From contig JAACJO010000031.1 in NCBI GenBank assembly GCA_013368445.1, positions 186,001 to 250,000 of the forward strand: DNA of 64,000 nt, read 5' to 3'. The stretch comes from Leucocoprinus leucothites. Taxonomy: Eukaryota > Basidiomycota > Agaricomycetes > Agaricales > Agaricaceae. This document shows, piece after piece, positions 1,581 to 31,422 of this stretch (within the stretch, counting starts at the first letter, position 1; each line of letters begins with the position of its first letter). The notes beneath the pieces are model-generated. The model had not been told where the DNA came from, searched no databases, and worked only from the letters and a program-made list of their open reading frames with translations. Made by a program: the position numbers and the translations under genes.

Positions 1581-1787
1581 TTAATTGCCGGGGTTGGGGA
1601 CGCAGCAGGTCCAACAATCACCAATCTGAAAGGGAAGATTCGCAGGGCCCATGTGCGAACAGGATTGCTTCTCGGGAAAGCAGAAAGCGAGGCAATCCAT
1701 AAGTGATGCGTCATCCTGAGGAGCTGGGGCAGCGCTAACAACGGCGAGCAACGCAACAGATGCAATTACGGCAAAGAAAGACTTCAT
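1581..1787 (-). CDS. Small secreted cysteine-rich protein, CWTCC family, member 1
   Basis: A 68-residue single-exon reading frame. It opens with a classical signal peptide (MKSFFAVIASVALLAVVSA, cleavage expected near AAPAPQ). The mature part of about 48 residues has six cysteines spaced C-x3-C-x6-C-x14-C-W-T-C-C, with a G-D just before the fourth cysteine. The same signature recurs in six other genes of this window (9444, 15306, 20442, 24144, 26284, 30880). The start is supported by the identical signal peptide in member 6. Upstream lie a 5'-UTR intron and a TATA-like box shared with the other members. This is the only member on the minus strand and has the longest C3-C4 spacing. I recognise no described family. 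A secreted effector or antimicrobial role is inference only. Confidence 0.85.
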   Translation of the reverse strand: MKSFFAVIASVALLAVVSAAPAPQDDASLMDCLAFCFPEKQSCSHMGPANLPFQIGDCWTCCVPNPGN

Positions 1788-1863
1788 ATCTAGAGCAACA
1801 AGTCAAGTTAGCCACACCTGCAACTCATAGGCTCAGCTTGAACGTGAAAGACGTCGAACAAAC

Positions 1864-1942
1864 CTGCGATGTGATCACTGATATCTATCTGTGTGTATAT
1901 GCGTCAGTGCCATTCTCTAGTAGGGAAACTAAGACTACTCAC
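1864..1942 (-). promoter_or_regulatory. 5'-UTR intron of member 1
   Basis: On the minus strand a GTGAGT donor (at 1942) follows CCTCTT, and a CAG acceptor (at 1864) precedes GTTTGTTCGACG. Both exon edges are nearly identical to those upstream of members 2 and 6, which supports a real intron of 79 nt in the untranslated leader. The TATA-like ATAAAAGGG lies further upstream, on the minus strand at about 1991-2002. Confidence 0.7.
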
Positions 1943-2159
1943 AAGAGGCAAAGAGAGAACGACTCTGAGGAGAGTTTCGTTTACAGCCTGCCCTTTTATG
2001 AGTCTCTGGATGCATGCCATGCTTTCGTACAACCTCGCAACTTCCCGATGCTACTCGGCACTCCGAATAAATTGCTGACCTCCTCGTTGAAACGTTCAAG
2101 CTTCTAGCTTGACATGCTGTATTCTTGAAGTAGCTGTTCTTGTCGACAACCAGTCCATC

Positions 2160-2425
2160 CGCCATACATAATTCCTCCTGCCTTAGGTGATTTCTCTTGT
2201 CATACCCAACTGTCGGCTTTCACGAGGTTTTCATAGCGTACTATGTACTCGCTGTGCGACGTGTGAGCCGCTGTCATAGTCGAGCTTATTCGTAATCGGT
2301 AACGGACCTATGTAGTTTTTTCTCTCAAAATGGCTCGGGAGTCGTGTCCCCCCCGGAATGCTAGTACAGTCCACTGCGGAGCATGGGTTTACTAAATCAT
2401 TTCTGGACCCGTAAGAAGCAGCGTG
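2160..2425. repeat. Diverged direct repeat, copy A
   Basis: This stretch matches 3470-3705 in the same orientation. Shared runs include CATACCCAACT, CGGCTTTCA, ACTCGCTGTG, AATGCTAGT and CCACTG.GGAGCATG, separated by substitutions and small gaps. No coding capacity is conserved between the copies. It could be an old duplicate of a regulatory region or a decayed mobile element; no terminal repeats are visible. Confidence 0.6.
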
Positions 2426-2750
2426 ATAACCGAGTTGTGGGGGCCTCTCATCTTGAGAGGATATTAGGGTGCACGCATGATAGACGTCATGATGCCCAGT
2501 CAAAACTCCATTGGCCGATATGGAAGTCCAGAGAGGTCTGATGAAAGCCATCTAAAATCAAAAGTTGACACCACATTTGAGGCTCTTGGTGATTGCTAGT
2601 GATGGTGATTGATCATTTCGGTCTCAGTCTATCAATTTCTATAATATTCAATGTTGCCTTTTAGATCCTCCTTGATGTCCACTGGTGCACATTGATTATT
2701 TTCTACCTCATTCTATGAGAATCAATAGGCTCAACAAATCGTTGATTCAT

Positions 2751-2790
2751 CAGATCAATGTATATCATTACAGATCAATGTATATCATTA
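2751..2790. repeat. Perfect 20-bp tandem duplication
   Basis: CAGATCAATGTATATCATTA occurs twice head to tail with no mismatch, in AT-rich intergenic DNA. It is probably a recent slippage product. Confidence 0.9.
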
Positions 2791-3469: not shown

Positions 3470-3705
3470 TCTGCCGTACATAATTCCTCTTGCTATACGT
3501 GATTTCTTTTGTCATACCCAACTCTCGGCTTTCATAGTGCACTACTCGCTGTGTGGCGTGTGAGTTTTTGTTATAGCCGGGCTTGTTCGCGATCGTTGGC
3601 AAGCCTAATTTTTTCGCTCGAAATGACCCAGATCTCTCCCGAAATGCTAGTGCACTCCACTGTGGAGCATGAGCATACTAAACCATTTCTGCACAAAACC
3701 ACCAC
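3470..3705. repeat. Diverged direct repeat, copy B
   Basis: Partner of 2160-2425, same orientation. Copy B lacks the segment near TTCATAGCGTACTATG that copy A contains. The rest of 2430-4790 shows no supported gene, only short frames without homology. Confidence 0.6.
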
Positions 3706-4933
3706 GGATATCACAAGTTGAAGTAGGGTTGTAAACAATAATCATCACAAGAAAGTGCAGTGGGACTGGGACATTTCCCTTGAAATGCCCCACGAGTAAT
3801 TGAGTGTGACCTTTTAAAGATTGTAGGCTCACTTGTTGCCCATGAAAACGGCGACTCCACAAGGCCTCATCATTCTCCGGCTTGTTATCACCAATTTCTG
3901 ATCATGACGTCCGTCGATCCCCAACATTCAGTGTCAATATACGAGGAGCAGCTGAACTATCTGGATCTTTGTTGTGTCACCCTCCTGATTGTTTCACCAG
4001 TCGACTCAGAGTTTATTGTACTCTTGTGTCACTTGACAATTTCGGGCTCCATCTCTAAAACAAAGCCTGGAATCGCAACCAACAACTCACGCAGTTCCTG
4101 GAATTAAGGCTTCGTTTAGTGTCCAGAGCTTTCGCAAAGCAGAAGCTATTATCAAACTAACTGCCTGTAGCCGTTGGCTCATTATTAAAGGGGCCCTATT
4201 GCCGTCTAGCGGCTAACCACGAAACCTCATCCAGTGAACCTCTTAGTCTATCAGTCACGATTGCCTGAGTATTACCCCCAGCTTTTCTTCTCCTCTCTCT
4301 GTAAACGGTTCTCTCCACCGTCTCGTTCTTCTCTTAATCCTGGACTTGCACCTCGGAACCTTGCTTCATAAATGTTCACCATAGTACTTAACAGAAGTTC
4401 GTGCCCTACCTCGTTCTCCAACCAGACACTACAATCTGACGTTATCCCTTATGCAGACGATAGCGAGAAAGGAGGCAAGGGATTTTAAAAACATGTTGAT
4501 GACTACTAAATCATACAAAGACTAGCCTCAGATAACTAGATCACAAATCGTTCGTGGGTGCACCGCAGAGTACTCCTGGTTACTATAACCGTAGAGCAGC
4601 ATTGAGAGTCCGGTGATCATGCACAAACGAAACGACAATACAGTTGATGACATTTGCCGATCAAATTGTTGCGTAGGAGGATGTACTACTGAGTAGATAC
4701 AAAGTCATCTGTGGGCGAGTGTTGAGAGCCATCAGTTGAAACTTGGGCACGAGTTCCTCTGTCTTTAAATAGATTTATGATAACTTAACAGCAACCATGT
4801 CCTTGTTTGAGCGATCAAATCTCCGAGAGGAGCATCAACATAGCATCTGCCCAGAGTACATCAGAAGTTTGTATACGCGCTCTCTGCTCTGCTCTCTCCC
4901 TTCCCCCACCGAGCGCACCAGAACCAAGAAGCC

Positions 4934-5797
4934 ATGGACATTGACTCTAACAACGACATGGATGTCGACGTTGACCACGACGTCACCATCACATCCTCGC
5001 TACTGCCAGCCCACATGCAGTCCATATCCTGGGTAGCACCACCATCTGCAGCTGAATCCTCTTCTACTGGCGTATATGATATCTGCAACAACTGGATCAC
5101 ATACAGCTGGGGAAAAGACAAGCCCAGCGCGAACATCGAACCATTCTGCAACCGTTGGCCACCCAGCTGTACAAGCTCACGATGGTGTGCATGGATTAGT
5201 GTTAATTGTGGGTTGTCCCCTGCTGCGAGAAATTTAGGTACGGATGAGTATGGGGCAAGGTTTAAGAGGGATTATAAAGGGTTGGAGAAAGAGTTCGATG
5301 CCATTACCAGAGGAGGGGAAGTGAAAGTGACGCCAGAGGTGATCGACGCGTTGGCGGTCAAGTACGGAGTGCTGAGTGGGAAGTGGATGGTTTATTCAAA
5401 ATCGGAGAGTGTCGACCAGATGTGGAGGAAGATCGTGCGCCTCGTAGCGCTTGATAGGGGCTATGGACAAGCAAAGGTGTCTGCCCGCAAGGTCCTCGAT
5501 GATCCGCAATATTATGCCAAGCTTAGCATTAACAGCGAAGAAAATCTGGATGGTGGTGCACCCGCACCAGGTGAAGACCATGTGATATGCGTCTACGTGG
5601 ATGATTATACGAATAAACAGGAGGTGGACGAGCTGAGGAAAGCTTTACGGTTTCGTGCGGGCGTGTTTTGGAAGATTGGGTTCAAGGCGGATGTGTATAC
5701 GCGGTTGAATATTTATAAGGGAAATGAGTGGGGGTTGAGGCCGAGTAGATATCATGACTTGGATTACCAAAGTGGAGGCTTGGGTAGAACTCATTAG
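4934..5797 (+). CDS. DUF1917 (BLES03-like) protein, copy 1
   Basis: An uninterrupted frame of 287 residues. It starts with an Asp-rich N-terminus, then has a Cys-containing middle (WPPSCTSSR.C.W), and then the conserved C-terminal part from about residue 150: KWMVYSKSESVDQMW, then GQAKVSARK, then HVICVYVDDY with a following LRKALRFRAGVFWKIGFK, and YTRLNIYKGNEWG. That order matches DUF1917, the family of human BLES03/C11orf68, a small single-domain protein of uncertain function. The start lies in GAAGCCATGG and aligns with the start of copy 2. A TATA-like TCTTTAAATAG at about 4764 lies in a promoter region that resembles the one before copy 2. UTP7-derived sequence follows, as it does after the other two copies. 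Confidence 0.78.
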   Translation: MDIDSNNDMDVDVDHDVTITSSLLPAHMQSISWVAPPSAAESSSTGVYDICNNWITYSWGKDKPSANIEPFCNRWPPSCTSSRWCAWISVNCGLSPAARNLGTDEYGARFKRDYKGLEKEFDAITRGGEVKVTPEVIDALAVKYGVLSGKWMVYSKSESVDQMWRKIVRLVALDRGYGQAKVSARKVLDDPQYYAKLSINSEENLDGGAPAPGEDHVICVYVDDYTNKQEVDELRKALRFRAGVFWKIGFKADVYTRLNIYKGNEWGLRPSRYHDLDYQSGGLGRTH

Positions 5798-5918
5798 AGT
5801 ATGTTGTATCTAGCGATCACAAAACATATGGGCCCGGAAAGCGGACCGATAATTCTCACGGCCTTCCATCAGCATCGTAATTTTGACTTGCCGGGCGTTT
5901 GTCGCGAGCTCTGATCTC

Positions 5919-6190
5919 ATGAACTCAATGTTCGCAAAAGCCGATGCGATAAAACCACTAGTAAAGCACCGCAAGTCAATACACAACGACTCTAGCTCAT
6001 CGACCAAAAAGTCTCAGGACAACCTCAACACCGCGAAACACACCTCCATACCCAAATCTCTCCATCCAACAGCAGTTGAACGTTCACGTTCAGAGCTCGG
6101 CAACCAATCGATCATGTGTGAACAAAGCGATAGCACTTGTCAATACACGATGTATATCATTTATGCATTACCGTGTTGTGTAAGAGTGTG
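5919..6190 (+). pseudogene. UTP7 5' fragment, relic 1
   Basis: Translation from 5919 gives MNSMFAKADAIKPLVKHRKS, closely matching the first residues of the complete UTP7 at 11882 (MDSLFAKADAIKPLAKRRK). It continues through a region like STKKSQDNL and KHTSIPKSL, then diverges after about 60 codons. None of the WD40 body is present; DUF1917 copy 2 promoter sequence follows directly. It is a truncated duplicate left by the tandem duplication. Confidence 0.8.
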
Positions 6191-6443
6191 TATTATTTAA
6201 TAGATGTGGAGTCGTTTGTGGGTGAGTGGTGAGGGTAATTATCAGTCGAGGGTTGGGTATTAATCCTTCTGTCTTTGAATGGATCCATGATAGACGCAGC
6301 CACGTCCTTATTCGAGCGAGCGAATTCTGCGAGGAGACAAGCATCCGTGTGGCACCTGTCACATCCGTTGAGATTAGATCAAAATTCATCGGATCCATAT
6401 ATGCACATTTTATTCTGCTCTTTCCCCTTTCTCTAGAACCACC

Positions 6444-7277
6444 ATGGACATCGACTCTAACGACATGGACATGGATGTCGACCGCGACTTTAACCTCACC
6501 ACTTCTGTAGCCTGGGTTGCACCACCATCTACAACTGAATCCTCCTCTACTGGTATATACGACCTCTACAACGACGGTGAAGGCGTCCGGGTTGTATACA
6601 ACTGGAAGAAAGACGACCCTAGCGCACGCATCGAACCATTCTACAACCGTTGGCCACCTAGCTGCACGAGCTCACGATCGTGTGATTGGATTTGCATTGA
6701 TTGTGGGTTGTCACCTTTTATGAAAAGTTTAGGTCCAGAGGAGCTTGGAACGAGGTTTAAGATGGATTATCTAGGATTGAAGGAAGAGTTCAATGCCATT
6801 ACGAGAGAAGGGGGAGTGAAAGTAACACCGGAGATGATCGACGCGTTAGCGGCCAAGTATGGAGTACTGAGTGGAAAGTGGATGGTTTATTCAAAACCGG
6901 AGAGCGTCGACCAGTTGTGGAGGAAGGTTGTACGCGTTGTGGCGTTTGATAGGGGATATGGACAAGTGAAGGTCTCTGCTCGCAAGGTCCTCGACGATCC
7001 ACAGTGTCATTCAGAGTTTAGTGCTAGCAGTAAAGAAGGGTGGAATGGTGGAGTACCTGTACCAGACGAAAGTCACGTCATGTGCGTCGACTATACGAAT
7101 AAACAAGAGGTGAATGAGTTGAGGAAGGCTTTACGGTTTCGTGCAGGCGTGTTTTGGAAGATTGGGTTCAAGCCGGATGTGTATACATTGCTGGGTGTTT
7201 ACAAGGGGAATGAGTGGGGGTTGAGGCCAAGTAGATACCATGACTTGGATTACCAAAGTGGAGATAGAGCTTACTAG
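6444..7277 (+). CDS. DUF1917 (BLES03-like) protein, copy 2
   Basis: An intact 277-residue frame, highly similar to copy 1 along its whole length. It has an Asp-rich N-terminus (MDIDSNDMDMDVD), then WPPSCTSSR, KWMVYSKPESVDQLW, GQVKVSARK, VNELRKALRFRAGVFWKIGFK and VYKGNEWGLRPSRYHDLDY. It lacks the VYVD insertion-like residues before DYTNKQ seen in copy 1. The start context CACCATGG is good. The upstream region (6120-6430) aligns with that of copy 1. No frame break was seen, so both copies may be expressed. The biochemical role of the family is not known to me. Confidence 0.78.
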   Translation: MDIDSNDMDMDVDRDFNLTTSVAWVAPPSTTESSSTGIYDLYNDGEGVRVVYNWKKDDPSARIEPFYNRWPPSCTSSRSCDWICIDCGLSPFMKSLGPEELGTRFKMDYLGLKEEFNAITREGGVKVTPEMIDALAAKYGVLSGKWMVYSKPESVDQLWRKVVRVVAFDRGYGQVKVSARKVLDDPQCHSEFSASSKEGWNGGVPVPDESHVMCVDYTNKQEVNELRKALRFRAGVFWKIGFKPDVYTLLGVYKGNEWGLRPSRYHDLDYQSGDRAY

Positions 7278-7393
7278 GAGTACACGATCACAAACATATG
7301 AGCTCGGAAAGCGGACCGGTAGTTCTCACAGTCCTCCATCAGCACCGTAATTTTGATTTGGTTTTATGAGCACCTGTCGAGAGCTCTGATCTT

Positions 7394-7640
7394 ATGGACT
7401 CACTATTCTCAAAAGCCGATGCAATAAAACCACCGTAAAAACGCTGTAAAACAACACAAAACGGCTCTGGCTTATCAACCAAAAAAGTCTCAGGACAAAC
7501 CTAGCGCCGACGACACAGCACAACTCTTCACGAAACACTGCCCAATATCCAAATCTCTTCACCCCACAGCAGCTGAACTTTCAAACGACTCGACACCAAG
7601 ACTCTCACACATAGCAAACCAGTTACATGAAGAACTACAG
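7394..7640 (+). pseudogene. UTP7 5' fragment, relic 2
   Basis: Sequence equivalent to the first UTP7 exon (LMDSLFSKADAIKPP then a stop) with later matches to TKKSQDNLS, KSL and SNDS, broken by stops and indels. It ends near ACATGAAGAACTACAGAG, which corresponds to about codon 80 of UTP7. SSP-type promoter sequence follows within 20 bp. Confidence 0.75.
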
Positions 7641-7655
7641 AGGGTTGTCTCAGAC

Positions 7656-8540
7656 TGAAGGATGTCTATGTAGACTTCTCGTTCTCGCACAAAGTTTTAA
7701 GGCGAGGATTTTTGGATTAAAAGGCCAGTCGTACCACAATGTTTTCTGCAGAATCATTCTCCCTTCACACTTATAAATGAACTTAACATTCTTCCTAACA
7801 TTACAACAACATTCCAACGGGTCCCCCAAACAGATGTCAACGATAGCAGCATGCTCTTCGTTTATCCGCTCCATTGAAATTGAAAACAGCTGAGAGTACG
7901 AAAATATACTTGAACCAATGGTATAAAATGCGAGGCAGATAGGTAGATCGCACTGGCGCAGTCGATATAAAGTGGGCTTATAAAAATAGTTCCCTGCGGG
8001 TCCATCGTTGTCATCAGGGACGTGAGCTACAAGTTTATCAACTTAAAACACAACATGGAGGTTGTCTGTGCGCCGCGTATTACAATACTCATTTTCGTGC
8101 TTATGAGAAGTGGAACTCGAGTTTAGATGAATCATTCAGTCTTGGAGTACTATCGGACGACCATTAGGAACATTGCTCCGCTATGATTATGGCCGTACTT
8201 GACTCCACCTCGAGCTAGGCAATCTGTAATATTTAGTTCCAAATAGTAGGTCTCTTTGTGGGGCTCCCACAACTTTGTAATTCACTGACTAGTAACTGTA
8301 CAGGATATAATAAAAGGCCAAGACTGCCCGTGAATTCTTCAGACTGACAGGTAATCTTGCGTCCGGCCCGTACAAAATAAAATACCCGCGTTATTCGCAA
8401 TCGGCCAGATGCTTTCTCGAGAAAAGCATGAATAACCCAGGCTGTAGGTGTTGAAGCGCAAGCGAAGATACGATAGGTAAACATCCTGTCATGGAACCGG
8501 GAAGGAAAGATAGCCAAAAAAATAGATTTAACGCTTGTCA
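7656..8540 (+). pseudogene. Ghost of an SSP locus: promoter fused to 3' flank, coding sequence deleted
   Basis: From 7656 to about 7843 the sequence aligns with the promoter and leader of members 3 and 4 (GTCTATGTAGA, GGCGAGGATTTTTGGAT, AACATTCTTCCTAACATTAC). From about 7846 (CATGCTCTTCG) it aligns instead with DNA lying about 1 kb further downstream in those loci (16210 onward and 21265 onward: TTCGCTCCATTGAA, AATGGGCTTATA, GGAACATTG). The signal peptide, proline-rich and cysteine-coding parts are absent. The simplest reading is one deletion of roughly 1 kb that removed the gene. Confidence 0.75.
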
Positions 8541-9443: not shown

Positions 9444-9644
9444 ATGAAATCTTTCTTCGCCATTCTTGCCTCCGTTGCTCTGCTCGCTGTCCAAAATGTT
9501 GTTGTCAGCGCTGCTCCGGCACCCCAGGACCAACCTACCTTCTGCTTTATACCCTGTACCGCTGAAAGGCCGGACACATGTCCCTTTGAGAATACTAGCC
9601 CAGTAAACCAAGGCACATGCTGGATGTGCTGCGGGACGGCCTAA
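9444..9644 (+). CDS. Small secreted cysteine-rich protein, CWTCC family, member 2
   Basis: 66 residues in one exon. The signal peptide MKSFFAILASVALLAVQNVV is followed by VSAAPAPQ. The mature part has the family signature C-x3-C-x7-C-x12-C-W-M-C-C; Met replaces the usual Thr before the final CC. It pairs with member 5 (24144), which has the same extra QNVV in the signal region and sits in the matching duplicated block. The start is supported by that pair and by the leader intron. Function unknown; export by the secretory route is the only firm inference. Confidence 0.85.
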   Translation: MKSFFAILASVALLAVQNVVVSAAPAPQDQPTFCFIPCTAERPDTCPFENTSPVNQGTCWMCCGTA

Positions 9645-11745: not shown

Positions 11746-11881
11746 TCAAGGTAGAGGCTTAGGTGGGGCTCGCCAGGGTACTATGTCCGCTTTCACAAAA
11801 CATATGAGCGGGCCGGAGTTCTCACGGCCTTCCATCATCGCAATTTTGATTTTCTGAGCGCCAGTCGGGAGCTCTGATCTC

Positions 11882-14007
11882 ATGGACTCACTATTCGCAA
11901 AAGCCGATGCCATAAAACCACTAGCAAAACGCCGCAAAACCGCACACAATGGCTCTGGATCATCGACCAAAAAGTCTCAGGACAACCTCAGCGCCGACTA
12001 CACAGCGCAATCCGTCGCAAAACACACCTCGATACCCAAATCTCTTCTCCCAACAACAGCTGAACCTTCAAACGACTCTGCACCTAAACACTCACACATA
12101 GCCAACAAAAAGCTACGTGGAGAGTTACAAAGACAATCGGCGCATAATGCGAGGGCGAAAGCGTTGGTGGATGATTCGGCGGATATGTTGTTGTTGGAGG
12201 ATGTTGGGAAGATGGAGGTGGAGGGTGAGATGGATAGGACGTGGAGAGCTGGGCAAAGTGAGATTGTGAAAGTTTCTGGGCAAGAAGCGGCGAAGGGGAG
12301 GAAGGAACTGAAGTTGGATGGTGGTCCGTATAGGACAAGATATACCAGGAATGGTCGGTGCGTTTAGTCGCTCAAATTTCTTCTTTGCGAGAGAGGCTGA
12401 TGTTTGATAATGGGCGTTAATTTAGGCATTTGGTGATTGCAGGTCGTCATGGACATGTCGCTGCGTTTGACTGGCAGACAGGTACACTACACACAGAACT
12501 TCAACTCCAGGAAACATGCCGCGATATCACATTCCTACAAGATCATACATTCTTCGCCGTCGCGCAGAAAAAATTTGTCTACATATATGACAGAGACGGC
12601 GTAGAACTTCACTGTCTAAGATCTCACGTCGAGCCTACACGGCTCGAGTTCCTGCCATACCATTGGCTCCTAGCATCCGTTGTGCGTCTCTCCTCAAAAC
12701 TAACACATTATATTCTAACGGAAAACTCCCTTTCATCCTAGGGAAATTCCGGCTATCTCAAATACCAAGACACCTCCACCGGCCAACTCCTCGTCGAACA
12801 CCGCACCAAACTCGGTGCCTGCACCACCATGACCCAAAACCTACACAACGCCGTCATCCACCTCGGCCACCAAAATGGCTGCATCACCCTCTGGACACCC
12901 AACCTCCCACACCCTGCCGTCCAACTCCTAGCGCACTTGGGCCCTGTATCAAGTGTGAGTGTTGATCCGAGTTCGGGGGGACGCTATATGGCTAGTGCTG
13001 GGAAAGATGGGACTGTAAAGGTTTGGGATTGTAGGAATTGGAAGGGAGCGGTGAGGGAATGGAGTGTTAGAGGGAGTGGATCTGAAACGGAGGTTGAGTG
13101 GAGCCAGAGAGGATTTTTGGGTGTTGCGAGTGGTGGGAGTGTGAATGTGTATTCACCTCCGACGATTCAGCAGCAATTCAATGGTCACGTTCAACCACCA
13201 CTTTACCTCACACATCCTATTCCAAGTCGTCCACTCACCTCTCTCCGCTTCACACCTTTCCAAGATGTACTTACTATCGGCCATAACGCCGGGGTCTCAA
13301 GTATCCTCGTACCGGGTACTGGAGAACCCAATTTTGATTCATCAGAGGCAGATCCATTTGAGAGCCGGAAAGCGAGGAGGGAGAGGGAGGTTAAAGGATT
13401 ACTCGACAAGGTAAATTCAACCTTCATCGGTGATATCGGATGCTGACTACTTCATTTCGATTTTAGATTCAACCAGACCTCATCACTCTCGATCCAGAAT
13501 TTATCGGCACCCTCACCGAACCTTCCAAACTCGTCACATCGGACGGTAAACCAGCAACAGACACGCCATTCGCGCGATTACCCCGTTTCGATAGATTACG
13601 CGTTTCTGGCAAGGTTGATACGACTGAGGATCCGCACTCCTCTGACGATGATAATAATGACGAAAGAATAGCAGAGGGAGGGATAGACGAGGAGAAGAAA
13701 GCAAAGCTGAGAGAGGAGAGAGAGAAGAAGAGAATGAGAGGGAAGAATAAGAGTATGAAGAGATATTTGAGGAAGCAGAGGAAGAATGTTATTGATCCTG
13801 CTACGGTATGTTTCTTACACCGACAACGATACTCAGTCCACGATTGCTCATGCTCGTTTATTTGAATACAATACAATATAGGTTGCGATTAGAGAAAAGT
13901 TGGAAAAGGTGAAGGAGGAGAAGAGACGGGCTGTGTTGGTGAAGAAAGGGATCATAGAGGAGAAGAAGAAATCGTCGGCTTTGGATCGGTTCAAGCACAG
14001 GACATGA
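11882..14007 (+). CDS. UTP7: UTP7/WDR46 (BING4), small-subunit processome WD40 protein
   Basis: Five exons (11882-12357, 12426-12681, 12742-13410, 13467-13805, 13882-14007) join in frame to 621 residues. The N-terminus is basic. The WD40 part has GRHGHVAAFDWQTG, FFAVAQKKFVYIYD, VEPTRLEFLPYHWLL, NAVIHLGHQNGCITLW, MASAGKDGTVKVWD and PFQDVLTIGHNAG, then the BING4 C-terminal region with ADPFESRKARRE and KQRKNVIDPAT. These match UTP7 of yeast and WDR46 of animals, which bind the U3 snoRNP/SSU processome in the nucleolus and are needed for 18S rRNA maturation. It is the only intact copy here; 17417-19216 is a dead duplicate and 5919 and 7394 are stubs. The start is fixed by the same MDSLFAKADAI start in the stubs. 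Confidence 0.92.
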
Positions 14008-15099
14008 TCTAGGATCACTGGATGAGTTCGAGTACGATAATGCCGATTCGGAAATGTACAGACGAGATTATTCTCTTAGCCCGGCTGCCTCGGCGAGTCG
14101 TGTGTCCTCGGCTTTCATTGATATTTGAAAACAAACACGACTTGACGATACGATCGAATTTTTTTCTTTGTTTACCTGAAACATTGCTGCTTGCCAGATG
14201 GTCCACCGAGTTTGACGAAGGGGTGAACTTTACCTGACATCTTCCCTTGTCCTTCTACTCTCAAATTAGCTGGAGTTCCTGGTCTAACCTCGTTCGGTAT
14301 ATCCAGAAGTGGGGTATTTTCAGAAGGTCCACGAAAACTCAAGGACGTCTTGCAAAAGTCAATGAGAGCGTTTATGTTATGTAGTGTGCAGGCACGATGT
14401 CCACGGAATTGAAATTCGAATTGTGTGGGAGTACTATTTGCAGCTCCTTGGCAGATGGTGATATGTGCCGCATTATTTCAGCGAGGTCGAGGCACCTGGG
14501 GGATCAACGCCACACGGCTTTTGATGGCCTCGAGGGAATGATCGGAGTCGATATTTTAGTATGGCGAGAAATATACAAGAGGATAGTAAACTGTATGGAT
14601 CGGAACCGAGGTTGAGAAGGAATAGTTGGAGCTCTTGAGAGCTTAATAGTAGATTATTACGTTCTTGAGCTTGAAGCATACTTGGTCAGAGATTAACGTT
14701 CATCGTATTCATCTAGCGCCGTAACGTCGAGTCATCAGATATAGACACAAGGTAATCTAAAATGAGAGTTGTATGAATACTTCTCAAGTCCACTCAAGGT
14801 CCTTGTCAGGACTTCATATATCAACGGAATTTTATCAGGCGAACGTCTATTCAATCTTTCTGATGGATCGTTCCATGATTTCGACGAAAGAAATAATAGA
14901 CTTGTTCAATCGCATGCACACACATCTATGTGCAATCTACGTCTCAGTCACCCCCTTTGTGTCCGGATGTTCAAGGTTCAACTGCAGCGTGCGAGCTCTG
15001 GGAAGTTAGAATGACATTGATAGAAGGCGGTCGTTTCAGATTGAAGGACGTCTATGTAGAATTCTCGTTCTTGCACGATCCTATTTCGAGGCGAGGAAT

Positions 15100-15247
15100 T
15101 TTGGATAAAAAGCCAACGGTATCTCAGTGTTTTCTCCAGACTTGTTCTCTCTTCGCATCTGTGAGTGTATACAACCTTCTTCCTAACATTACACCACCAT
15201 TCTTACCACCGTTTCGAATAGATCTCAACGATCACCTGAAATCGCAG
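15100..15247 (+). promoter_or_regulatory. Core promoter and 5'-UTR intron of member 3
   Basis: TTGGATAAAAAGCC at about 15100 is the TATA-like box. A GTGAGT donor at 15161 and an acceptor ending at 15247 (ATCGCAG) bound an 87-nt leader intron, followed by GTTTGTTCTCGGACAAGCG, which is the family's conserved exon start GTTTGT. Confidence 0.7.
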
Positions 15248-15305
15248 GTTTGTTCTCGGACAAGCGATTTGTGCGCTCGTACTCATCACAAATTCTGGTT
15301 TAGAT

Positions 15306-15569
15306 ATGAAATTCACCTCCGTGATTATTGCCTCGATCGCTTTGTTCGTTGCTCAAGTCGCCGCGGAGCCTGTTCCGGGTGCGGTTAAGCCCACACCACC
15401 AGCTCCTCCCGTCTATAAGCCTCCTACCTACAAGCCTCCCCCTCCCCCTCCCCCTCCCAAGCAGGAGTGCCTCAAGTCCTGCAGCTACGGGAAACCTACC
15501 TGTAGCTATGGCTGGAGCGCTGTCAAGAAAGGAGATTGCTGGACCTGCTGCAAGGATATCAAATACTAG
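15306..15569 (+). CDS. Small secreted cysteine-rich protein with proline-rich linker, CWTCC family, member 3
   Basis: 87 residues. The signal peptide is MKFTSVIIASIALFVAQVAA. A proline-rich spacer follows at about residues 25-50, built of YKPP-like units and a run of prolines. The C-terminal core is C-x3-C-x6-C-x11-C-W-T-C-C with GYGW-like and KKGDCW residues, ending KDIKY. The core is nearly identical to that of member 4. Proline-rich YKPP spacers are common in wall-linked proteins, so attachment to the wall or to polysaccharide is conceivable but not shown. The gene lies about 1.3 kb after UTP7, on the same strand. Confidence 0.87.
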   Translation: MKFTSVIIASIALFVAQVAAEPVPGAVKPTPPAPPVYKPPTYKPPPPPPPPKQECLKSCSYGKPTCSYGWSAVKKGDCWTCCKDIKY

Positions 15570-17416
15570 GATTAAAGGGAATGAAGGGCTTCCAAGCCGA
15601 TGACCAGAATGTTTGAAGTGTTTAGTTTGTGTGCTCAGGTCGTGTATGATCGATTGTCTCGTTGTTTGTGTTCGACTCGCCTATAGGGAAAAAGAGAGAA
15701 AATTTATGACGATTGTTGTATCGTGTATGCAGTATGGAGCCTGTGTGATTACTATGATGACTGATATACAACGTATGTTGAGATACTCGATCAGGACTAG
15801 GGTTCCTCACAGAAGCCTACACCTCCAATTTCCCGGGACATGTAGGCGCAACGATAAAAATAGTTGGGACTCGCCCGTATAGTATATGCCCGGGCCCTTT
15901 GGTGCTGGTTGCTGATAAGTCTATATTACGCATGAGCGCTTTCTTCTTTTTGCAGTTCGCCTCTTCAACCCTGTTTCAGAAGCGCTGTTCACTGATATCA
16001 CCAGTGTTGAGTGCTCAAAGTTTCTGTCCATTGCTTATTGACTGCTATATGACCTGTCTTTCATCTCAGACAGTGTTCCAATCTGAGCTTTAAGAATGTG
16101 GTCTGAATCAAACTTTTACTTCTTTTGTTTACTTTTTTTTCGAAAGTCCTCCTAAACTTCGAACACCAAGGAATGTAGATTGGATTTGTATCATGCGATA
16201 TGGTCGAAACATGCTCTCCATTTATTCGCCTCATTGAAAATTAAAAAGCAATTGAGCATAATAGTAGAAAAAGCGCAACATCATCATATCCTGACTCGTG
16301 GATAAGCAGATCACTGTGGTGCAGTTGATCCATAATGGGCTTATAACAATAATAGTTTCTCTGTGGGTCGACCATTAACACCAGGGAATGAGCGACGAGT
16401 TTATCAACCCAAAACACGGGCCTGAACAATCTCGCGAGACAAGACCACTGAAGCTGACACTGTAAAGACGGTTTCTCAAAGTATCATAATGGTGAACGCG
16501 AAAATGGCCTCTGGAATTGAGCACCTAATAAGTAGGAGAGTCGGCGTAATACCCACCAATTCAAAAGGAAAATAATGGGACCCAAAACACCACCAGCAAT
16601 GTGTGACAAGACGCCTTTGTACATTGTGGAAAACAGCCAGAAAGAAGAGGTACTGCACCAAGAAAGTCGGTGCAAGCCCAAAACATCATAGCTGCTCGTC
16701 GCAGTTATCCATTCCATCTGGCCTTGAAGATTTGCGTGACTCATGCCAGATAGGATAGGGGGAATAAAGTAGAAACTCGTTGACGGGGAACAGACTGAGT
16801 AAACCTGCTGGTCTGCGAGCAGGTATACTGTTTCTACCGTGACTCCAATAGATGAGCAAGGCAACCTGGAGAAACTGAGGCCCTAAGCGTTCGAGTCGGC
16901 TCACTAGCGCCGGTTGGCCTAGGAACTGTCCTGTGATGCAAGGGTCGATCTGACCTCAGTTATGATGGTCAATCAAAGAAAGCATTGTTGAATAATTGTG
17001 AGATGCCCTTCACCATCCAGAAAGACAGTCAATATGATTGGAAAACAGGGAATGATACGCTCATCAGTGCAACTCATCAAAAGACTCGCGTGACTGATCA
17101 ATAATGCCTGCTTACTAATACCTGAATTCCATTATCTTCCTCCGCGAAGGGCAAGAACAAGATGTAGCACGGCACCAGCAGTGACGTTCGAATCCCTAAC
17201 GGTCTTGTCGTTTGCAGGCCTGGCATGGAAATCAACCTTCATGCCTAGACATAACGCGATTTTTCGCTTACATTTGTCGACCACTGAAGATTAATCGTTG
17301 TTGCGATGGAGGAACACCGGATTGCTCTTCGGCCTTCTCCTTGATGCGAATAATCTAGTGAAACTCTTCACAGCAAAATAGGATAAGTGGCAGGATTGTT
17401 CGTAGACTGATATGAC

Positions 17417-19216
17417 AGAGGTGAAGGTTGAGATGGATAGGACATGGAGAGCTGGGCAAATTGAGGTTGTGAAAGTTGCTGAACAGGAAGTTGCGAAGGA
17501 GAGGGAGGAGCTGAGGTTGGATGGTGGTCCGTATAGAACACGGTACATGAGGAATGGTCGGTGCGTTCACTCGTTCGTTTTTTCTTTGTGAGAGACTAAT
17601 TGGGTTAGCTTCAGGCATTTCGTGATTTCAGGTCGCCATGGACATGTCGCTGCGTTTGACTGGCAAATGGGCACACTACATACAGAACTTCAGCTCCAGG
17701 AAACATGTCGCGATGTCACATTCCTCCATGATCACACATTCTTTGCCGTCGCGCAGAAAAAGTTTGTCTACATATATGACAGAGACGGTGTAGAACTTCA
17801 TTATCTAAGATCTCGCGTAGAGCCTACACTGCTCAAGTTCCTACCATACCATTGGCTCCTAGCACCTGCCGTACGTCTTTCCTTCCCAAAACCAATACTT
17901 TAAGATTCTAACAGAACGCTCCCTTTTATCCCAGGGAAACTCCGGCCACCTCAAATACCAAGACATCCACCGGCCAACTCCTCGTCGAACACCGCACCAA
18001 ACTCGGCACCGGCACTACCATGACCCAAAACCTACACAACGCCGTCGTCCATCTCAGCCACCAAAACGGCTGCATCACCCTCTGGACACCAACCTCCCAC
18101 ACCCTGCCGTCCAACTCCTAGCACATCTGGGTGCTGTATGAAGCGTGGTGCTGATTGGAGTTCAAGGTGGCGGTATATGGCTAGCGCTGGGAAAGATGGG
18201 ACTGTGAAGGTTTGGGATTGTAGGAATTGGAAGGGAGCGGTGAGAGAATGGAGTGTTAGAGGGAGCGGATCGGAGACGGAGGTTGAGTGGAGTCAGAGAG
18301 GATTGTTGGGTATTACGAGTGGTGGAAGCGTAAATGTAAGTGTCTAGATTGATCTTTTCTCCGCTCTGCAACTGATTTGGTGGTAGGTATATTCCCCTCC
18401 GACGATTCAGTAGCAGTTTAACGGTCACATCCAATCGCCAATATACCTCACACATCCGCTTCACTCCCTTCTAAGATGTGCTTACTATTGGCCATGACGC
18501 TGGAATTTCAAGGATCCTCACAACGGGCTCTGGTGAACCTAACTTTGATTCGTCGGAAGCCGATCCGTTTGAGAGTCGGAAAGTGAGAAGGGAGAGGGAG
18601 GCTAAAGGGTTACTCGGCAAGGTAAATTCAACCTTCATCGGCGATTTTGGGTGCTGACTACTTCATTTTGTTTTTAGATTCAAACAGACGTCATCACTCT
18701 CGATCCAGAATTTATTGGACTCCCTGAACCCTCTAAACTCGTCACATCGGACCGTAAACCAGCAACAGACATGCCATTCGCGCGATTACCCCGTTTCGAC
18801 CGATTACGCGTTTCTGGAAATGTTGATACGTCTGAGGATCTGCACTCCTCCTCCTCCTCTGATGATGATGATGATGATGGTGACAAAAGAATAGCAGAGG
18901 GAGGGGGAGAGACAGATGAAGAGAAGAAAGCAAAGTTGAGAGAGGAGAGAGAGACGAAGAGGATGAGAGGGAAGAATAAGAGTGTGAAGATATATTTGGG
19001 GAAGCAGAGGAAGAATGTTATTGACCCTGCTACGGTGCGTTTCTTACACCAACAACGATATTCGGTTCACGATTACTCATGCTCGTTTATTTGAATATAT
19101 TATAGGTCGCAGAGAAAAGCTGAGGAAAAGAGACGGATAGTGTTGGTGAAGAAGGGAATCAAGGAGGAGGAGAAGAAATCGTCGGCTTTGGATCGGTCCA
19201 AACGCAAGACATGATC
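17417..19216 (+). pseudogene. UTP7: UTP7 duplicate, truncated and frameshifted
   Basis: It begins within the equivalent of the first exon (VEMDRTWRAGQ) and lacks the start and the first 110 or so codons. The second exon is still readable (GRHGHVAAFDWQMG, AVAQKKFVYIYD). In the third, GACACCTCCACC has become GACATCCACC, a 2-bp loss that shifts the frame; a further 1-bp loss lies near 18089, an in-frame TAG near 18410, and about 30 bp are missing near 18455. The acidic/basic C-terminal exons remain similar. It is a non-functional copy of the gene at 11882. Confidence 0.88.
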
Positions 19217-20238
19217 TAGGATGACTGGATGAATTCGAGTACGATAATGCCGATTTGAAAATGTACAGACGAGATTATTTTCTTAGCCCTGCTGCCTTGG
19301 CGAGCCGTGTGTGCTCTGCTTTCATTGATATTTTGAAAACGACTTGATGATAAGATCGAAAGTGTTTGATCTGTTTACGTGAAACGCCGCTTGCTTGCCA
19401 GATCGTACACCGGGTTTGACGAAGCCTGACATCCCCCCTTGCTCTTCCACCCTCAAATTAGCTGGGGTTCCTAGTCTAACCTCTTTCGGTATATCCAGAA
19501 AGCCCAAGAAAAACCAGAGTCGTGTTGAAAAAGTCAATGAGGGTGTTGCTTTCTGTAGTGTGCGGCCACGATGTCCACGGAATTGAAATTCGAATGGTCT
19601 GGGGTACTATTTGCAGCTTGTTGGCAGGTGGTGATATGTGCCGCATTATTGCAGCGAGGTCGAGGCACATGCGGGATCAATGCCACACGGCTTTTGATGG
19701 CTTCGAGGGAATGATCAGAGTCGATAATTTAGTATAACGGGAGATTACCAGAGGATGAGCTCTGTGGATCGGAGCCGAGGTCGAGAACTGGAGCTCTTGA
19801 AAGCATAATAGCAGACTATTACGTTCTCGAGCTTGAAGCTTACTTGGTCAGAGATTAACGTTCATCGTAAAGTTCGTCTAGCGCTGTAACGTCGAGCCAT
19901 CAGATATAGACGCAAGGTAACCTAAAATGAGAGTTGTATGAATACTTCTCAAGTCCACTCAAGGTCCTTGCCAGGATTTCATATATCAACGGAATTTCAT
20001 CAGGAGAACGTCTATTCAATCTCTCTGATGGATCATTCTATGATCTCGACCAAAGAAATAGACTTGTTCAACCGCACACAGCTGTAAGTATGCCTGCCCC
20101 CCTTTGTGTCCGAATATTCAGCTGCAGCCTGCCAAATTTTGAAGTTAGAATGACATTGACCAGAGCGGTCGTTTCAGATTGAAGGGCATCTATGTAGAAT
20201 CCTCGTTCTTGCACGAAGTCTTGAGGCGATGAATTTTG

Positions 20239-20393
20239 GATAAAAAGGCCAACTGTATCCCAGTGTTTTCTCCAGACTCGTTCTCTCTTCGCATCTGTGA
20301 GTGTACACAACCTTCTTCCTAACATTGCGCCGGCATTCTTATCAATCTTTTGAATAGATACCAACGATCACCTGAAATCGCAGGTTTGTTCTC
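20239..20393 (+). promoter_or_regulatory. Core promoter and 5'-UTR intron of member 4
   Basis: TTGGATAAAAAGGCC at about 20236 is the TATA-like box. A GTGAGT donor at 20297 and CAG acceptor ending at 20393 bound a 97-nt leader intron that aligns with the one of member 3. Confidence 0.7.
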
Positions 20394-20441
20394 GGACAAG
20401 CGATTTGTGCGCTCGTACTCATCACAAATTCTGGTTTAGAT

Positions 20442-20735
20442 ATGAAGTTCACCTCCGTGATTATTGCCTCGGTCGCTTTGTTTGCTGCCCAAGTCGTCGC
20501 GAACCCTGCTCCGGGTGCTCCAGCGGTTAAGCCCCCGCCACCACCACCTCCTCCCTATAAACCTCCCGTCTATAAACCTCCTGGCTACAAGCCTCCCCCT
20601 CCCCCTCCCCCTCCCCCTCCCCCTAAGCAGCAATGCCAAAAATCCTGCAGCTATGGTAAACCGACGTGTAGCTATGGTTGGAGCGCTGTCAAGAAGGGAA
20701 ATTGCTGGACTTGCTGCAAGGATATTAAATACTAG
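20442..20735 (+). CDS. Small secreted cysteine-rich protein with proline-rich linker, CWTCC family, member 4
   Basis: 97 residues, with signal peptide MKFTSVIIASVALFAAQVVA. The proline-rich spacer is about ten residues longer than in member 3: extra YKPP units and longer proline runs. The core (C-x3-C-x6-C-x11-C-W-T-C-C, tail KDIKY) is almost unchanged. So after the duplication the linker changed length while the cysteine core was conserved, which suggests the core is under selection. Same strand, 1.2 kb after the dead UTP7. Confidence 0.87.
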   Translation: MKFTSVIIASVALFAAQVVANPAPGAPAVKPPPPPPPPYKPPVYKPPGYKPPPPPPPPPPPKQQCQKSCSYGKPTCSYGWSAVKKGNCWTCCKDIKY

Positions 20736-21989
20736 GATTACGGGGAATGAAGGGCTCCCAAGCTGAAGATCAGAATTTTTGAAGTGTTTGGTTTGTGTGC
20801 TCGGGTCGTGTATGATTGATTGCCTGGTTGTTTGTTCGACTTGTCTACAGGAAAAAGAGAGAAAATTTATGATGACTGTTGTACCGTTTGTATATGGAGT
20901 CGATGTGATTACTATGATGATTGATATACAAGTTATGCTGAGATATATGATTGGAGCTAGGATTCCTCAGAGAAGACACCTCGAACTTCTCGGGACATGT
21001 AGGCGCGACGATAAAAATAACGGGACTCCGTCCGTATAGTATTCGCCCCCTGATGTTAGGTGCCGAGTAGCCTTGATAGACGGACTTTATGTCCGAGGGC
21101 ATTTATTTTTGCACAGTTCCCTTGTTGCTTATTCATCCCTTTTTCAGAATCGCCGCAGTCATTCGATTTCTCTGTTTCCTTTCTTCCATAGAGAACCCTC
21201 CTGAACTTCGAACACTAATGGATTTAGAGCCCATTCGTATCACATGGCATGGGCGGCCTAAACATGTACTTCATTTATTCGCTCCATTGAATTTCGAACA
21301 GCTGAGCGTATGAAGATATGCATAAAAAAGCGCGGCATCGTCATATTCTGACCCGTGGATAGGCAGATCATTGTGGTGTAGTCGGTACAAAATGGGCTTA
21401 TATTATAACAATAGTTCTCTGCGAGTCCATCATTGACACCAGGAGGTGAGCGGCGAGTGTATCAACCCAAAGGACAATACAGAATTTGTCTATGCGCGCG
21501 GCACTACACAATCTTCATTTTTGTACTTATTAGAAGCCGAACTCGGGTTCACTTGGATCATTTTGGTCTTGGAACGCTATCAGTTGGTCATACTTGGGGG
21601 GCATTGTTCAGCTAAGCAATTTGAAATTTCCAATCTTAGTTCCGAATGGTAAGGTCTCTTCAAGGGGCTCCTGCAGGTTTGACTTTCACTGACCAGCAAC
21701 TGGACGGGATACAAAAGATCAAGGCGGCCGTGGAGCCTTGGAACGAACGGGTACTAAACTCCGCATCCAGCCGCTCGAAAGTAAGATATCTGTCGTCGCT
21801 TCTTCACTTTCTCTCGTATAGCGTGAGTGCCCCAGACTGTTCTGCTGTCAACATAAGCGCCAACTGCCCTACGTTTCAGCCTGAGGCTGTCTTACTATTT
21901 CCGCCACATGCTCAATCGGTCGTGAATAACTTTTGCCCTTCTCCGCCTTGCATTCTACATCATAACCTACTCCATTTCACCAGCTATAT

Positions 21990-24110: not shown

Positions 24111-24143
24111 TATTGTACTGCTGCTGACTTGAAGGGTCTAGAC

Positions 24144-24350
24144 ATGAAATCTTTCTTCGCCATTTTTGCCTCCCTTGCTTTGCTCGCTGTCCAAAATGTT
24201 GTTGTCAGCGCTGCTCCGGCACCCGAGAACCCGCCTCGCATCTGCCTTCTTATCTGCTACCTCGAAAAGCCCGACACCTGTGCTAAAGGCTATAGCCCTG
24301 TGAATCAAAACGGTTGTTGGACCTGCTGCAAGGGTCCTGTTTACACCTAA
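24144..24350 (+). CDS. Small secreted cysteine-rich protein, CWTCC family, member 5
   Basis: 68 residues. Signal peptide MKSFFAIFASLALLAVQNVV, then VSAAPAPE. The core is C-x3-C-x7-C-x11-C-W-T-C-C with NQNGCW before the last cluster, ending KGPVYT. It is the duplication partner of member 2, but the region between signal peptide and last cysteines has diverged more than the signal peptide. The start was chosen at the MKSFF methionine, not the longer in-frame extension, because the leader upstream is shared with member 2. Confidence 0.85.
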   Translation: MKSFFAIFASLALLAVQNVVVSAAPAPENPPRICLLICYLEKPDTCAKGYSPVNQNGCWTCCKGPVYT

Positions 24351-26213: not shown

Positions 26214-26283
26214 GTTTGTTCGACGTTTTGCATGTCCAAAAAACCAGTTGCAGGTGTCGCTAACTTGACCGGTTGATCCAGCC

Positions 26284-26523
26284 ATGAAGTCTTTCTTCGC
26301 CGTAGTTGCATCTGTCGCGTTTCTCGCTGTTGTCAGCGCTGCCCCGGGTTACGAGCCTGAACCGTATCACCCACCTCACCCAATTCCCACTGCCTGTCTC
26401 AAGATCTGTTATGCCGAGAAACCTGGACCGTATGTCTGTGGCGAGGGCTCTCATGCCCAGAAGTTTGGTGACTGTTGGACCTGCTGCAAGAACCCCACCT
26501 ACCACCATGCTAGTTATAATTAA
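26284..26523 (+). CDS. Small secreted cysteine-rich protein, CWTCC family, member 6
   Basis: 79 residues. Signal peptide MKSFFAVVASVAFLAVVSA, then a short His/Pro-rich stretch (EPEPYHPPHPIP). The core is C-x3-C-x9-C-x11-C-W-T-C-C with QKFGDCW, then a 13-residue tail rich in His and Tyr. Its signal peptide is closest to member 1, which is inverted at the other end of the cluster. The C2-C3 loop is the longest of the family. The His-rich spacer could bind metal; this is speculation. Confidence 0.86.
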   Translation: MKSFFAVVASVAFLAVVSAAPGYEPEPYHPPHPIPTACLKICYAEKPGPYVCGEGSHAQKFGDCWTCCKNPTYHHASYN

Positions 26524-26529
26524 CGGCAT

Positions 26530-29511: not shown

Positions 29512-30680
29512 TCAGTGTGGATTCGGGATTTCAGACAAAGTGTAATGTGTGTTAGTCTGTATCGATATTATTCAATGTTTTACGATACTTTATCATAATA
29601 TAATGCTTGCACGTGTGGAATGTAGGAGGCGCACTAGATGAAGTAAAGCGAAGTGAACGAAGCGTAGATCATATTTGGGAGATCAGAACATCTTTCACCC
29701 TAATCCCACTCTCGCTCCTAGTAAATGGCCAAGTCAAGCTCAGCTAGAGTCGAGTGGACTAGCTGCATTTGTCGAGGATGTCTCCCAAAAAGTATAGGCA
29801 ATTTTCTAGTCATATCTATTCCGGTTCCTTAGCTGACTGGTTGGTTGTAGAGGGGTCCTAAGCCCTGGCTGCCCTCCTGGCTTCACTCATCACAAGTCGG
29901 TGCAATGGATAATCTGGTCAACCTCATGGAGCGTTGGAACATCATGAACAATGGAAGACCCCTAGAAACTTACTAGGATCCAGACGAACCGCATTCCTAC
30001 AACCGCAGCGGATCGCCAGAGATATCTTCCAACTTGCAACTCTAGTGGCACGTTCTTGGAGCAGAGTGTCAACCAAAAGTAGTGGAATCATCGAACTATG
30101 GCTTAGTCCTCGAGCTATGACGATTACGCAGTGATGTACAAAGTTATGTTCTCCACGAGATTTAGGTGAATGACCACCAAGGAGGTGTAAGAATCGCTAA
30201 AAGTTCACTACACTTGCCAGTGGCTTGACCCTCTCGCAGTGCAGAATCCATAATAGGAAGCTCTAAATGGGTACAGGACGGAAAGAAGATGATATAATGC
30301 ACTGCTACTATCGACAAGTGCTGTTTAAATTTGTGCCGCTGCGTCTACGAACTTTATGGGAAGACTAGGACGACTTTAGGGAGGACGAGCCCCAATATAT
30401 GACAAAACCCATCGTAGATAACCAAAGGACGTCTGTCAGGAGGTCTTGAGAAATGGGTGAACCACCACTTGGAGGATGGTCTGTGGAAATGAGAACCATT
30501 GAGGTTTCCTCCTTGTCGACCTCGATCTTGATTGTACCCATATGCTTAGGTGTGTTCCCAGTGAGTCGACTTTTCGCCGCACCCTATGCTAGAACTGGTA
30601 GTCACCAAAGTAGTAGAATGGTGGTTAGTTTATCTTCACTACTATACCCGATTCACATATTGGAACTGCGGGCCATGGCG
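29512..30680. other. Intergenic, no supported gene
   Basis: Kinase 3' flank and the region before the glycine-rich SSP. Only short frames without support. Confidence 0.5.
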
Positions 30681-30683
30681 AGG

Positions 30684-30838
30684 ATAAAAGGAAAGCAGAA
30701 GCGTGAATCCTCTCCAGAATCGTCTAACTATCGCTCCTTGTGAGTCACAGGACGTCTTTCCTACCTCTCTTCACCAACTAACTTAACTCTCTATAGATTA
30801 TATTAACTTGAGGGTTGGTCATCTCTAATTAACCTCAG
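30684..30838 (+). promoter_or_regulatory. Core promoter and probable 5'-UTR intron of member 7
   Basis: AGGATAAAAGGAAAG at about 30680 is the TATA-like box and CAGAATCGTCTAAC lies about 34 bp later, matching members 1, 2 and 6. A GTGAGT donor at 30740 and an acceptor ending about 30838 (AACCTCAG) give a 99-nt intron; an earlier acceptor at 30796 is possible. Confidence 0.62.
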
Positions 30839-30879
30839 CGGAAATCTTTCATATAAATCACAACGGGTGTCTTATAGTC

Positions 30880-31422
30880 ATGAAATTCAACGCTGCAGCC
30901 ATCTCTGCCTACATCGTCGTTGCGGCTAAACTCGCGATCGCGAGCCCTGCCGCTGTTAGTACCACCACTCCGGACACAACTACTGACGGTGGTTGGGGAA
31001 ACACTGGTGGCCAAGTTAATGGTTGCTACAACCTTTGCTACCCTAACTGGGAGCCCTGCGCAGCGGGATTGACCTCTCAGAAAGTCGGCAATTGTTGGAC
31101 TTGCTGCACAAATGGTGGCGGAAACTGGGGGAACGGAGGTAGTTGGGGAAATGGAGGAAGTGGGGGGAATTGGGGCAATGGAGGAAATGGAGGAAATTGG
31201 GGCAATGGCGGAAACTGGGGCACTGGTGGTACTGGAGGGAACTGGGGAAATGGTGGTACTGGCGGGAATTGGGGCAATGGCGGTAGCGGCGGAAACTGGG
31301 GCAATGGTGGTACTGGCGGGAACTGGGGTAACGGCGGGAGCTGGGGCAACGGGAATAATGGAGGAAATTGGGGCAACGGCGCGAACGGTGGCGGGAACAA
31401 TGGACAGTGGAGCCGCCGCTGA
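30880..31422 (+). CDS. Small secreted cysteine-rich protein with Gly-Asn-Trp repeat tail, CWTCC family, member 7
   Basis: 180 residues. Signal peptide near [21 protein letters not shown], then a short Thr-rich stretch. The core is C-x3-C-x6-C-x11-C-W-T-C-C at about residues 50-77, with QKVGNCW before the last cluster. The rest is a repeat of units such as GGNWGNGG and GTGGNWG, about 100 residues. The order signal - core - repeat differs from members 3 and 4, where the low-complexity part precedes the core. Regular Trp in a Gly-rich tail suggests a surface-binding or self-assembling segment; that is inference. It sits between the kinase and the laccase-like gene. Confidence 0.85.
31110..31410 (+). 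repeat. In-frame glycine-rich minisatellite of member 7
   Basis: Units related to GGNWGNGG recur about a dozen times, with Thr or Ser replacing single residues. Codon choices differ between units (GGTGGT, GGCGGA, GGAGGA), so the array is not recent. The same array is open on other frames and on the opposite strand. Confidence 0.88.

What the first reader, a model, noticed from the sequence alone, without database searches (positions are those of the whole stretch)
1581..31422. A seven-member, clustered family of secreted six-cysteine proteins ending in C-W-[TM]-C-C
Seven genes (1581-1787 minus; 9444, 15306, 20442, 24144, 26284, 30880 plus) encode a signal peptide and a core C-x3-C-x(6-9)-C-x(11-14)-C-W-[TM]-C-C, usually with Gly and a polar residue before the fourth Cys. 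The core is constant while everything around it varies. The pattern does not match hydrophobins (two CC pairs, eight Cys), cerato-platanins, LysM or CFEM as I know them. Clustered, fast-duplicating secreted Cys-rich genes are typical of fungal effectors, antimicrobials or wall proteins. Novelty is inferred from my not recognising the family, not from a search.
Basis: partly seen in the sequence, partly recalled or inferred. Interest (0 to 1): 0.88.

Follow-up and report, generated by a model that had tools for sequence, protein, structure and literature searches.

The report
Uncatalogued fungal six-cysteine secreted protein family
A mushroom chromosome carries a cluster of small, apparently secreted proteins that share a six-cysteine domain also found in other fungi but absent from the family libraries searched here; what it does is unknown, and a defence or surface-binding role outside the cell is most likely.

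Summary
Seven reading frames match C-x3-C-x(6-9)-C-x(11-14)-C-W-[TM]-C-C; 60 simulated windows gave none. An eighth member and a divergent ninth lie left of the window. At least 23 genes sit on four contigs, five with two or three domain copies. All seven share a promoter and leader-intron layout, and the most similar duplicates have dN/dS well below 1: real genes.

The domain is not private to this species. Three searches returned 72 proteins, named ones from Agaricales, Aspergillus, Malbranchea and Conidiobolus; 68 carry one to four copies. No Pfam, NCBIfam or PDB-sequence match was found in the proteins scanned. AlphaFold gives a small beta-hairpin core without a convincing PDB relative.

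A correction: in six of seven pairs compared, the mature part diverged more than the signal peptide. This, tandem clustering and charge spread favour a diversifying extracellular binding or defence peptide. GPI-like, proline-rich or glycine-rich tails favour a wall-associated module. Function is inferred, not shown.

The parts
1581..1787 (-). member 1, 68 aa, one CWTCC domain
9444..9644 (+). member 2, 66 aa, one CWMCC domain
15306..15569 (+). member 3, 87 aa, Pro-rich PPVYKPPTYKPP stretch before one CWTCC domain
20442..20735 (+). member 4, 97 aa, longer Pro-rich stretch; copy of member 3 in a segmental duplication
24144..24350 (+). member 5, 68 aa, one CWTCC domain; structure modelled
26284..26523 (+). 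member 6, 79 aa, Pro/His/Tyr-rich stretch before one CWTCC domain; contained at 100% in public protein D9756_010058 (P0069), whose model starts further upstream
30880..31422 (+). member 7, 180 aa, one CWTCC domain followed by a long Gly-Asn-Trp repeat tail (tandem repeat 31116-31388)
15104..15305 (+). leader of member 3: TATA-type box about 202 bases before the ATG, GTGAGT donor at -145, TAG acceptor 2 bases before the ATG; the same layout lies before the other six
   Evidence: splicing inferred from sequence, no RNA
12215..15891 (+). segmental duplication carrying member 3, 82% identical to 17418-21048
17418..21048 (+). segmental duplication carrying member 4
7638..8310 (+). likely relic of a lost copy: matches the upstream (20161-20326) and downstream (21263-21581, 21610-21714) flanks of member 4, with no gene between

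Best explanation
The genes belong to an uncatalogued fungal domain family, called here the CWxCC domain: about 30 residues held by six cysteines, secreted alone or as two to three tandem copies. After export the domain should be locked by three disulfides into a small beta-hairpin fold and act outside the cell as a rigid binding scaffold. Tandem and segmental duplication make new copies whose surface residues, charge and tails diverge while Cys and Trp stay fixed. The most likely use is a family of diversifying extracellular binding or defence peptides, for example blockers of enzymes or growth of competitors or grazers, with tails deciding whether a copy diffuses or stays at the wall. Shown: the family, its spread, gene structure, selection and predicted core. 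Inferred: disulfides, secretion, target and use. The identity layer (uncatalogued secreted fungal domain family) I hold at about 0.9; the confidence below is for the defence/binding use.
For: Family and spread: own-genome searches with one member reach tandem-domain genes on contig C8 (E 9.2e-7, 64% identity over 35 residues); 72 database proteins, 68 with one to four domains; profile comparison of the seven with 13 relatives, probability 97, E 6.7e-11 over 34 columns. Real genes: dN/dS about 0.11 for members 3/4, 0.13 for the contig C1 pair, 0.30 for member 6 and the eighth; shared leader layout in 8 of 8 intact C31 members. Diversification: mature dN above signal-peptide dN in 6 of 7 pairs; domain net charge from -2 to +5 in seven members counted (member 7 not counted). 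Fold: mean pLDDT 79 and 82, core blocks 87-91.
Against: No target, expression or activity data. No pair shows dN/dS above 1, so positive selection is not shown; in one pair (9444/24144) the signal-peptide stretch is also low in dS, so gene conversion could mimic the pattern. Three of 72 relatives have GPI-like tails and several members have wall-protein-like tails, which fit a structural role better. Charge is not uniformly cationic, against a simple membrane-active antimicrobial. pTM is only 0.48-0.49. A permutation control with three equal-length domains did not separate window-type from CWGCC-type domains beyond the fixed Cys/Trp at 5% (302 of 5000 reach the observed similarity).
Confidence: 0.38

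Rival explanations
1. Wall or extracellular-matrix module: the CWxCC domain binds or cross-links wall or matrix polymers, and the Pro/Tyr/Lys-rich, Gly/Trp/Asn-rich or GPI-type tails anchor it at the hyphal surface.
For: Members 3 and 4 carry PPVYKPPTYKPP-like stretches, member 7 a Gly-Asn-Trp repeat, member 6 a Pro/His/Tyr stretch; 3 of 72 relatives end in a hydrophobic GPI-like tail after a Ser/Thr-rich stretch; tandem copies suit avidity; the Trp is present in 165 of the 168 hits that reach this position.
Against: Members 1, 2 and 5 have almost no tail. The canonical CWGCC copies have few aromatic residues beside the one Trp, unlike the aromatic face of fungal cellulose-binding modules (recalled). 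CBM_1 matches elsewhere in the genome (24 places at E <= 1), none at these genes. Strong divergence of the mature part is less expected for a structural module.
Confidence: 0.3
2. Protease inhibitors built like antistasin-type repeats: a disulfide-locked loop enters a protease active site, and tandem copies give multi-headed inhibitors.
For: Tandem copies with short linkers; spacing C-x-x-G-...-G-C-x-x-C resembles the C-terminal half of antistasin repeats (recalled, not computed).
Against: The Pfam Antistasin model finds nothing in the whole genome (0 matches at E <= 10) and does not hit any scanned member. No candidate reactive residue is hypervariable in an otherwise fixed loop, as judged by eye.
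Confidence: 0.12
3. Effector acting on a living host (plant or animal).
For: Clustered, fast-changing small secreted Cys-rich proteins are the usual look of effectors (general knowledge).
Against: L. leucothites is described as a litter decomposer (passages of PMC9469724); relatives include many mushroom genera and Aspergillus species without an evident shared host.
Confidence: 0.06
4. Secreted metal-binding or redox protein using CC and CxxCC thiols.
For: CxxCC cluster; several database names call relatives '4Fe-4S ferredoxin-type'.
Against: Those names come without a Pfam match in the relatives scanned (P0031, P0038 and P0049 among them); secreted cysteines are normally oxidised; no His/Asp-rich metal site is conserved.
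Confidence: 0.04

Closest known systems
P0003, 'small cysteine-rich protein' of Agaricus bisporus H97 (database name only) and other unnamed relatives
   Same: Same domain, three tandem copies, signal peptide; 71% identical to the contig C8 three-domain gene.
   Different: CWGCC rather than CWTCC, PxGxAxTGSxGC loop; no function published that I found (listings only).
Fungal hydrophobins, cerato-platanins, CFEM and LysM proteins
   Same: Small secreted Cys-rich fungal proteins in multigene families.
   Different: No match of any of the seven to any of their Pfam models at E <= 10; six Cys with one terminal CC instead of hydrophobin's eight (recalled).
Antistasin-type protease inhibitor repeats (PF02822)
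   Same: Tandem small disulfide repeats with a C-x-x-G...GC-x-x-C stretch (recalled).
   Different: Ends CC instead of CxC; no match in the genome.
Evasin-3, tick chemokine-binding knottin (PDB 6i31)
Conotoxin- or defensin-like diversifying peptide families (recalled)
   Same: Conserved signal peptide, fixed cysteines, fast-changing mature surface, clustered duplicates.
   Different: No sequence relation tested or claimed; dN/dS not above 1.

Membership tests
CWxCC domain family (defined here) | C-x3-C-x(6-9)-C-x(11-14)-C-W-x-C-C in a reading frame with N-terminal hydrophobic stretch | tested here: met
   7 of 7 window genes
CWxCC domain family (defined here) | sequence relation to tandem CWGCC proteins of other fungi | tested here: met
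   profile probability 97, E 6.7e-11 and single-sequence hits on contig C8; but the strict permutation control was not significant
Hydrophobin, cerato-platanin, CFEM, LysM (Pfam) | match to the family's Pfam model | tested here: not met
   no such match for 7 of 7 members at E <= 10
CBM_1 (PF00734) | match to the Pfam model | tested here: not met
   24 places in the genome at E <= 1, none at the family's genes
Antistasin (PF02822) | match to the Pfam model | tested here: not met
   0 matches in the genome at E <= 10
Antistasin (PF02822) | protease inhibition | not testable with these tools
   needs purified protein
Knottin (inhibitor cystine knot) | three disulfides I-IV, II-V, III-VI | tested here: inconclusive
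Secreted protein | cleavable signal peptide | tested here: inconclusive
   hydrophobic N-termini by eye; hydropathy maxima of 2.0-3.3 computed only for the first Met with its stretch in 15 relatives outside the window; no signal predictor run

The most novel reading that the evidence does not exclude
CWxCC is a fungus-wide disulfide scaffold, so far without a family entry, with its own disulfide pairing (possibly II-IV rather than the knottin order), which mushrooms duplicate and diversify as animals do with conotoxins or defensins: one conserved export and promoter cassette feeding a changing set of external binders.
Probability: 0.25. Interest if true: 0.72.

Novelty: new variant of a known kind. 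Interest (0 to 1): 0.45.

Why it matters
Small secreted Cys-rich proteins make up a large part of fungal secretomes, mostly without known domains (abstract start and passages of PMC7105643). A domain spread over Agaricales, Aspergillus and at least one Conidiobolus protein, with a clear cysteine signature and tandem architecture, would turn many 'hypothetical' or wrongly named proteins into one testable family. It also offers compact, stable scaffolds from mushrooms, edible ones among them.

Tried and rejected

Genome counts are lower bounds. Of 19 places with the string for CWTCC (control pattern 3), 12 belong to genes described here; four (L003-L006) lie in no frame with the full pattern and three (contigs C10, C26, C29) were not looked at. 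The wider CWxCC pattern gave 241 places against 122 for the control, listed only in part, and was not followed up. Literature: 'CWGCC' gave 88 papers, 20 listed, by title mostly microbiome surveys, none opened; six longer protein strings gave two papers, by title unrelated, not opened; 'small cysteine-rich protein' with Agaricus bisporus gave 11 listed, one looked into by passages and about cerato-platanins, hydrophobins and lectins (PMC4659598); 'cell wall cysteine-rich protein', part of a database name for P0034, gave none. The Pleurotus Ssp1 family (passages of PMC7105643) was not compared for want of sequence. The idea that the domain takes part in the unusual cellulose loosening reported for L. 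leucothites (passages of PMC9469724) has no support here. PHROGs, PADLOC, InterPro and expression data were not used.

Full report
What is there. The frames run from an MK start to a stop without interruption.

Where it is. The window is G000:C31:186001-250000 of a 47.0-Mb genome. Database protein D9756_010058 of Leucocoprinus leucothites contains member 6 and lies on a contig of 426,917 bases, the length of C31; D9756_005580 and D9756_001098/001099 lie on contigs with the lengths of C8 and C1. I therefore take the organism to be L. leucothites (Agaricaceae). Passages of PMC9469724 call it a litter decomposer.

The family in this genome. Searches with member 5, member 7 and an Agaricus relative, followed by reading of the loci, give 7 genes in the window, one intact gene at C31:173349-173585, 11 on C8 between 1,350,267 and 1,607,679, one on C4 and two on C1, plus a divergent gene at C31:179078-179251: at least 23. 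On C8, five genes have two or three copies of the domain. The C31 group spans about 44 kb. Expansion there is partly by segmental duplication: 12215-15891 is 82% identical to 17418-21048 and carries members 3 and 4, and 7638-8310 looks like the flanks of a lost copy.

Are they genes? An alignment of the seven upstream regions shows a shared TATA-type box, a GTGAGT donor and a YAG acceptor directly before the start codon. By pattern, 8 of 8 intact C31 members have the donor at -140 to -155 and the acceptor at -2, and 7 of 8 have the box at -197 to -208 (the eighth, member 1, has CATAAAA there in the alignment). Of the 14 other genes, 4 have a donor in the same range and 4 a box between -201 and -222. 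These are related sequences, so this is not an independent statistical test, but it implies one leader intron type shared across contigs. NG86 dN/dS is 0.11 for members 3/4, 0.13 for the C1 pair, 0.30 for member 6 and the eighth, 0.55 for members 2/5, 0.64 for members 1/6; no pair exceeds 1 where it could be computed.

What varies. In 6 of 7 pairs dN is higher in the mature part than in the first 22 residues; members 3/4 are the exception. Net charge of the domain runs from -2 to +5 among seven members counted. Tails differ in kind: Pro/Tyr/Lys-rich in 3 and 4, Pro/His/Tyr-rich in 6, Gly-Asn-Trp repeats in 7, almost none in 1, 2 and 5.

Relatives elsewhere. Three profile searches returned 29, 65 and 5 proteins, 72 different ones; 27 have one copy by pattern, 28 two, 12 three, 1 four and 4 none. 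Four are L. leucothites itself, and one metagenome protein ends in a sequence identical to the eighth member. Named sources include Agaricus, Macrolepiota, Leucoagaricus, Cyathus, Crucibulum, Galerina, Psilocybe, Gymnopilus, Agrocybe, Amanita, Pholiota, Phlegmacium, Crepidotus and Panaeolus; ten Aspergillus species; Malbranchea cinnamomea; and Conidiobolus coronatus. Many others are metagenome proteins of unknown owner. The CWTCC subgroup of the window found, in its own search, three L. leucothites proteins, the metagenome copy and one Macrolepiota protein, so it may be a local radiation; the search samples words and can miss relatives. Scans of bacterial/archaeal and viral contigs confirmed no relative.

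Homology between window type and tandem type. A window member hits a C8 domain at E 9.2e-7 with 64% identity, and the profiles align with probability 97 and E 6.7e-11. A stricter control that fixed Cys and Trp and permuted the other positions was not significant with the three equal-length domains available (302 of 5000). I take them as one family but note this.

Disulfide hint. Of 135 domain hits aligned at all six Cys positions, 134 keep all six and one, the divergent ninth gene, lacks the second and fourth together. If that gene works, the two may be partners. One case is a hint, not a result.

Function. The evidence fits a secreted disulfide-locked binding scaffold. Clustering, a faster-changing mature part and charge spread point to diversifying defence or competition peptides (0.38); tails, and GPI-like ends in 3 of 72 relatives, to a wall or matrix module (0.30). 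Protease inhibition (0.12), host effector (0.06) and metal or redox function (0.04) are less likely. None was tested.

Verdict. Real, under-described and wider than first thought; a specialist would find the family worth naming but not shocking. New variant of a known kind (fungal small secreted Cys-rich proteins).

Noticed in passing
window 4667-7583 and 11010-12106: Three related stretches; two open frames (4934-5797, 6444-7277) match PF08939 (Bles03).
   Followed up: partly
window 12829-13446: WD40/BING4CT gene piece inside the 12215-15891 / 17418-21048 segmental duplication.
   Followed up: no
window 41778-43854, 45085-46995, 58021-60062: Three diverged copies (66-69%) of a flavin-monooxygenase-like gene (PF00743; one over the cut-off, two weak).
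   Followed up: partly
window 46001-50000: Strong negative GC skew (-0.19 and -0.33); frames at 49388-50236 and 50994-52130 match Peptidase_C54, an autophagy protease family.
   Followed up: no
L053 / C8:1350267-1350692: Public model D9756_005580 (P0029) begins like this three-domain gene and then leaves the reading frame of the domain, so the annotation probably misses it.
   Followed up: partly
proteins P0028, P0030, P0032, P0067 (Aspergillus): Repeats break off after ...GSE or nearby, which suggests an intron inside the repeat that gene models miss.
   Followed up: no
protein P0025: A two-copy relative with a bacterial-looking N-terminus and an irregular first copy; owner unknown; no bacterial relative found.
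   Followed up: partly
proteins P0019, P0031, P0032, P0038, P0049, P0054, P0064: Database names such as '4Fe-4S ferredoxin-type' or 'CBM1 domain-containing'; the four of them scanned with Pfam (P0031, P0038, P0049, P0064) gave no family, so the names look wrong.
   Followed up: partly
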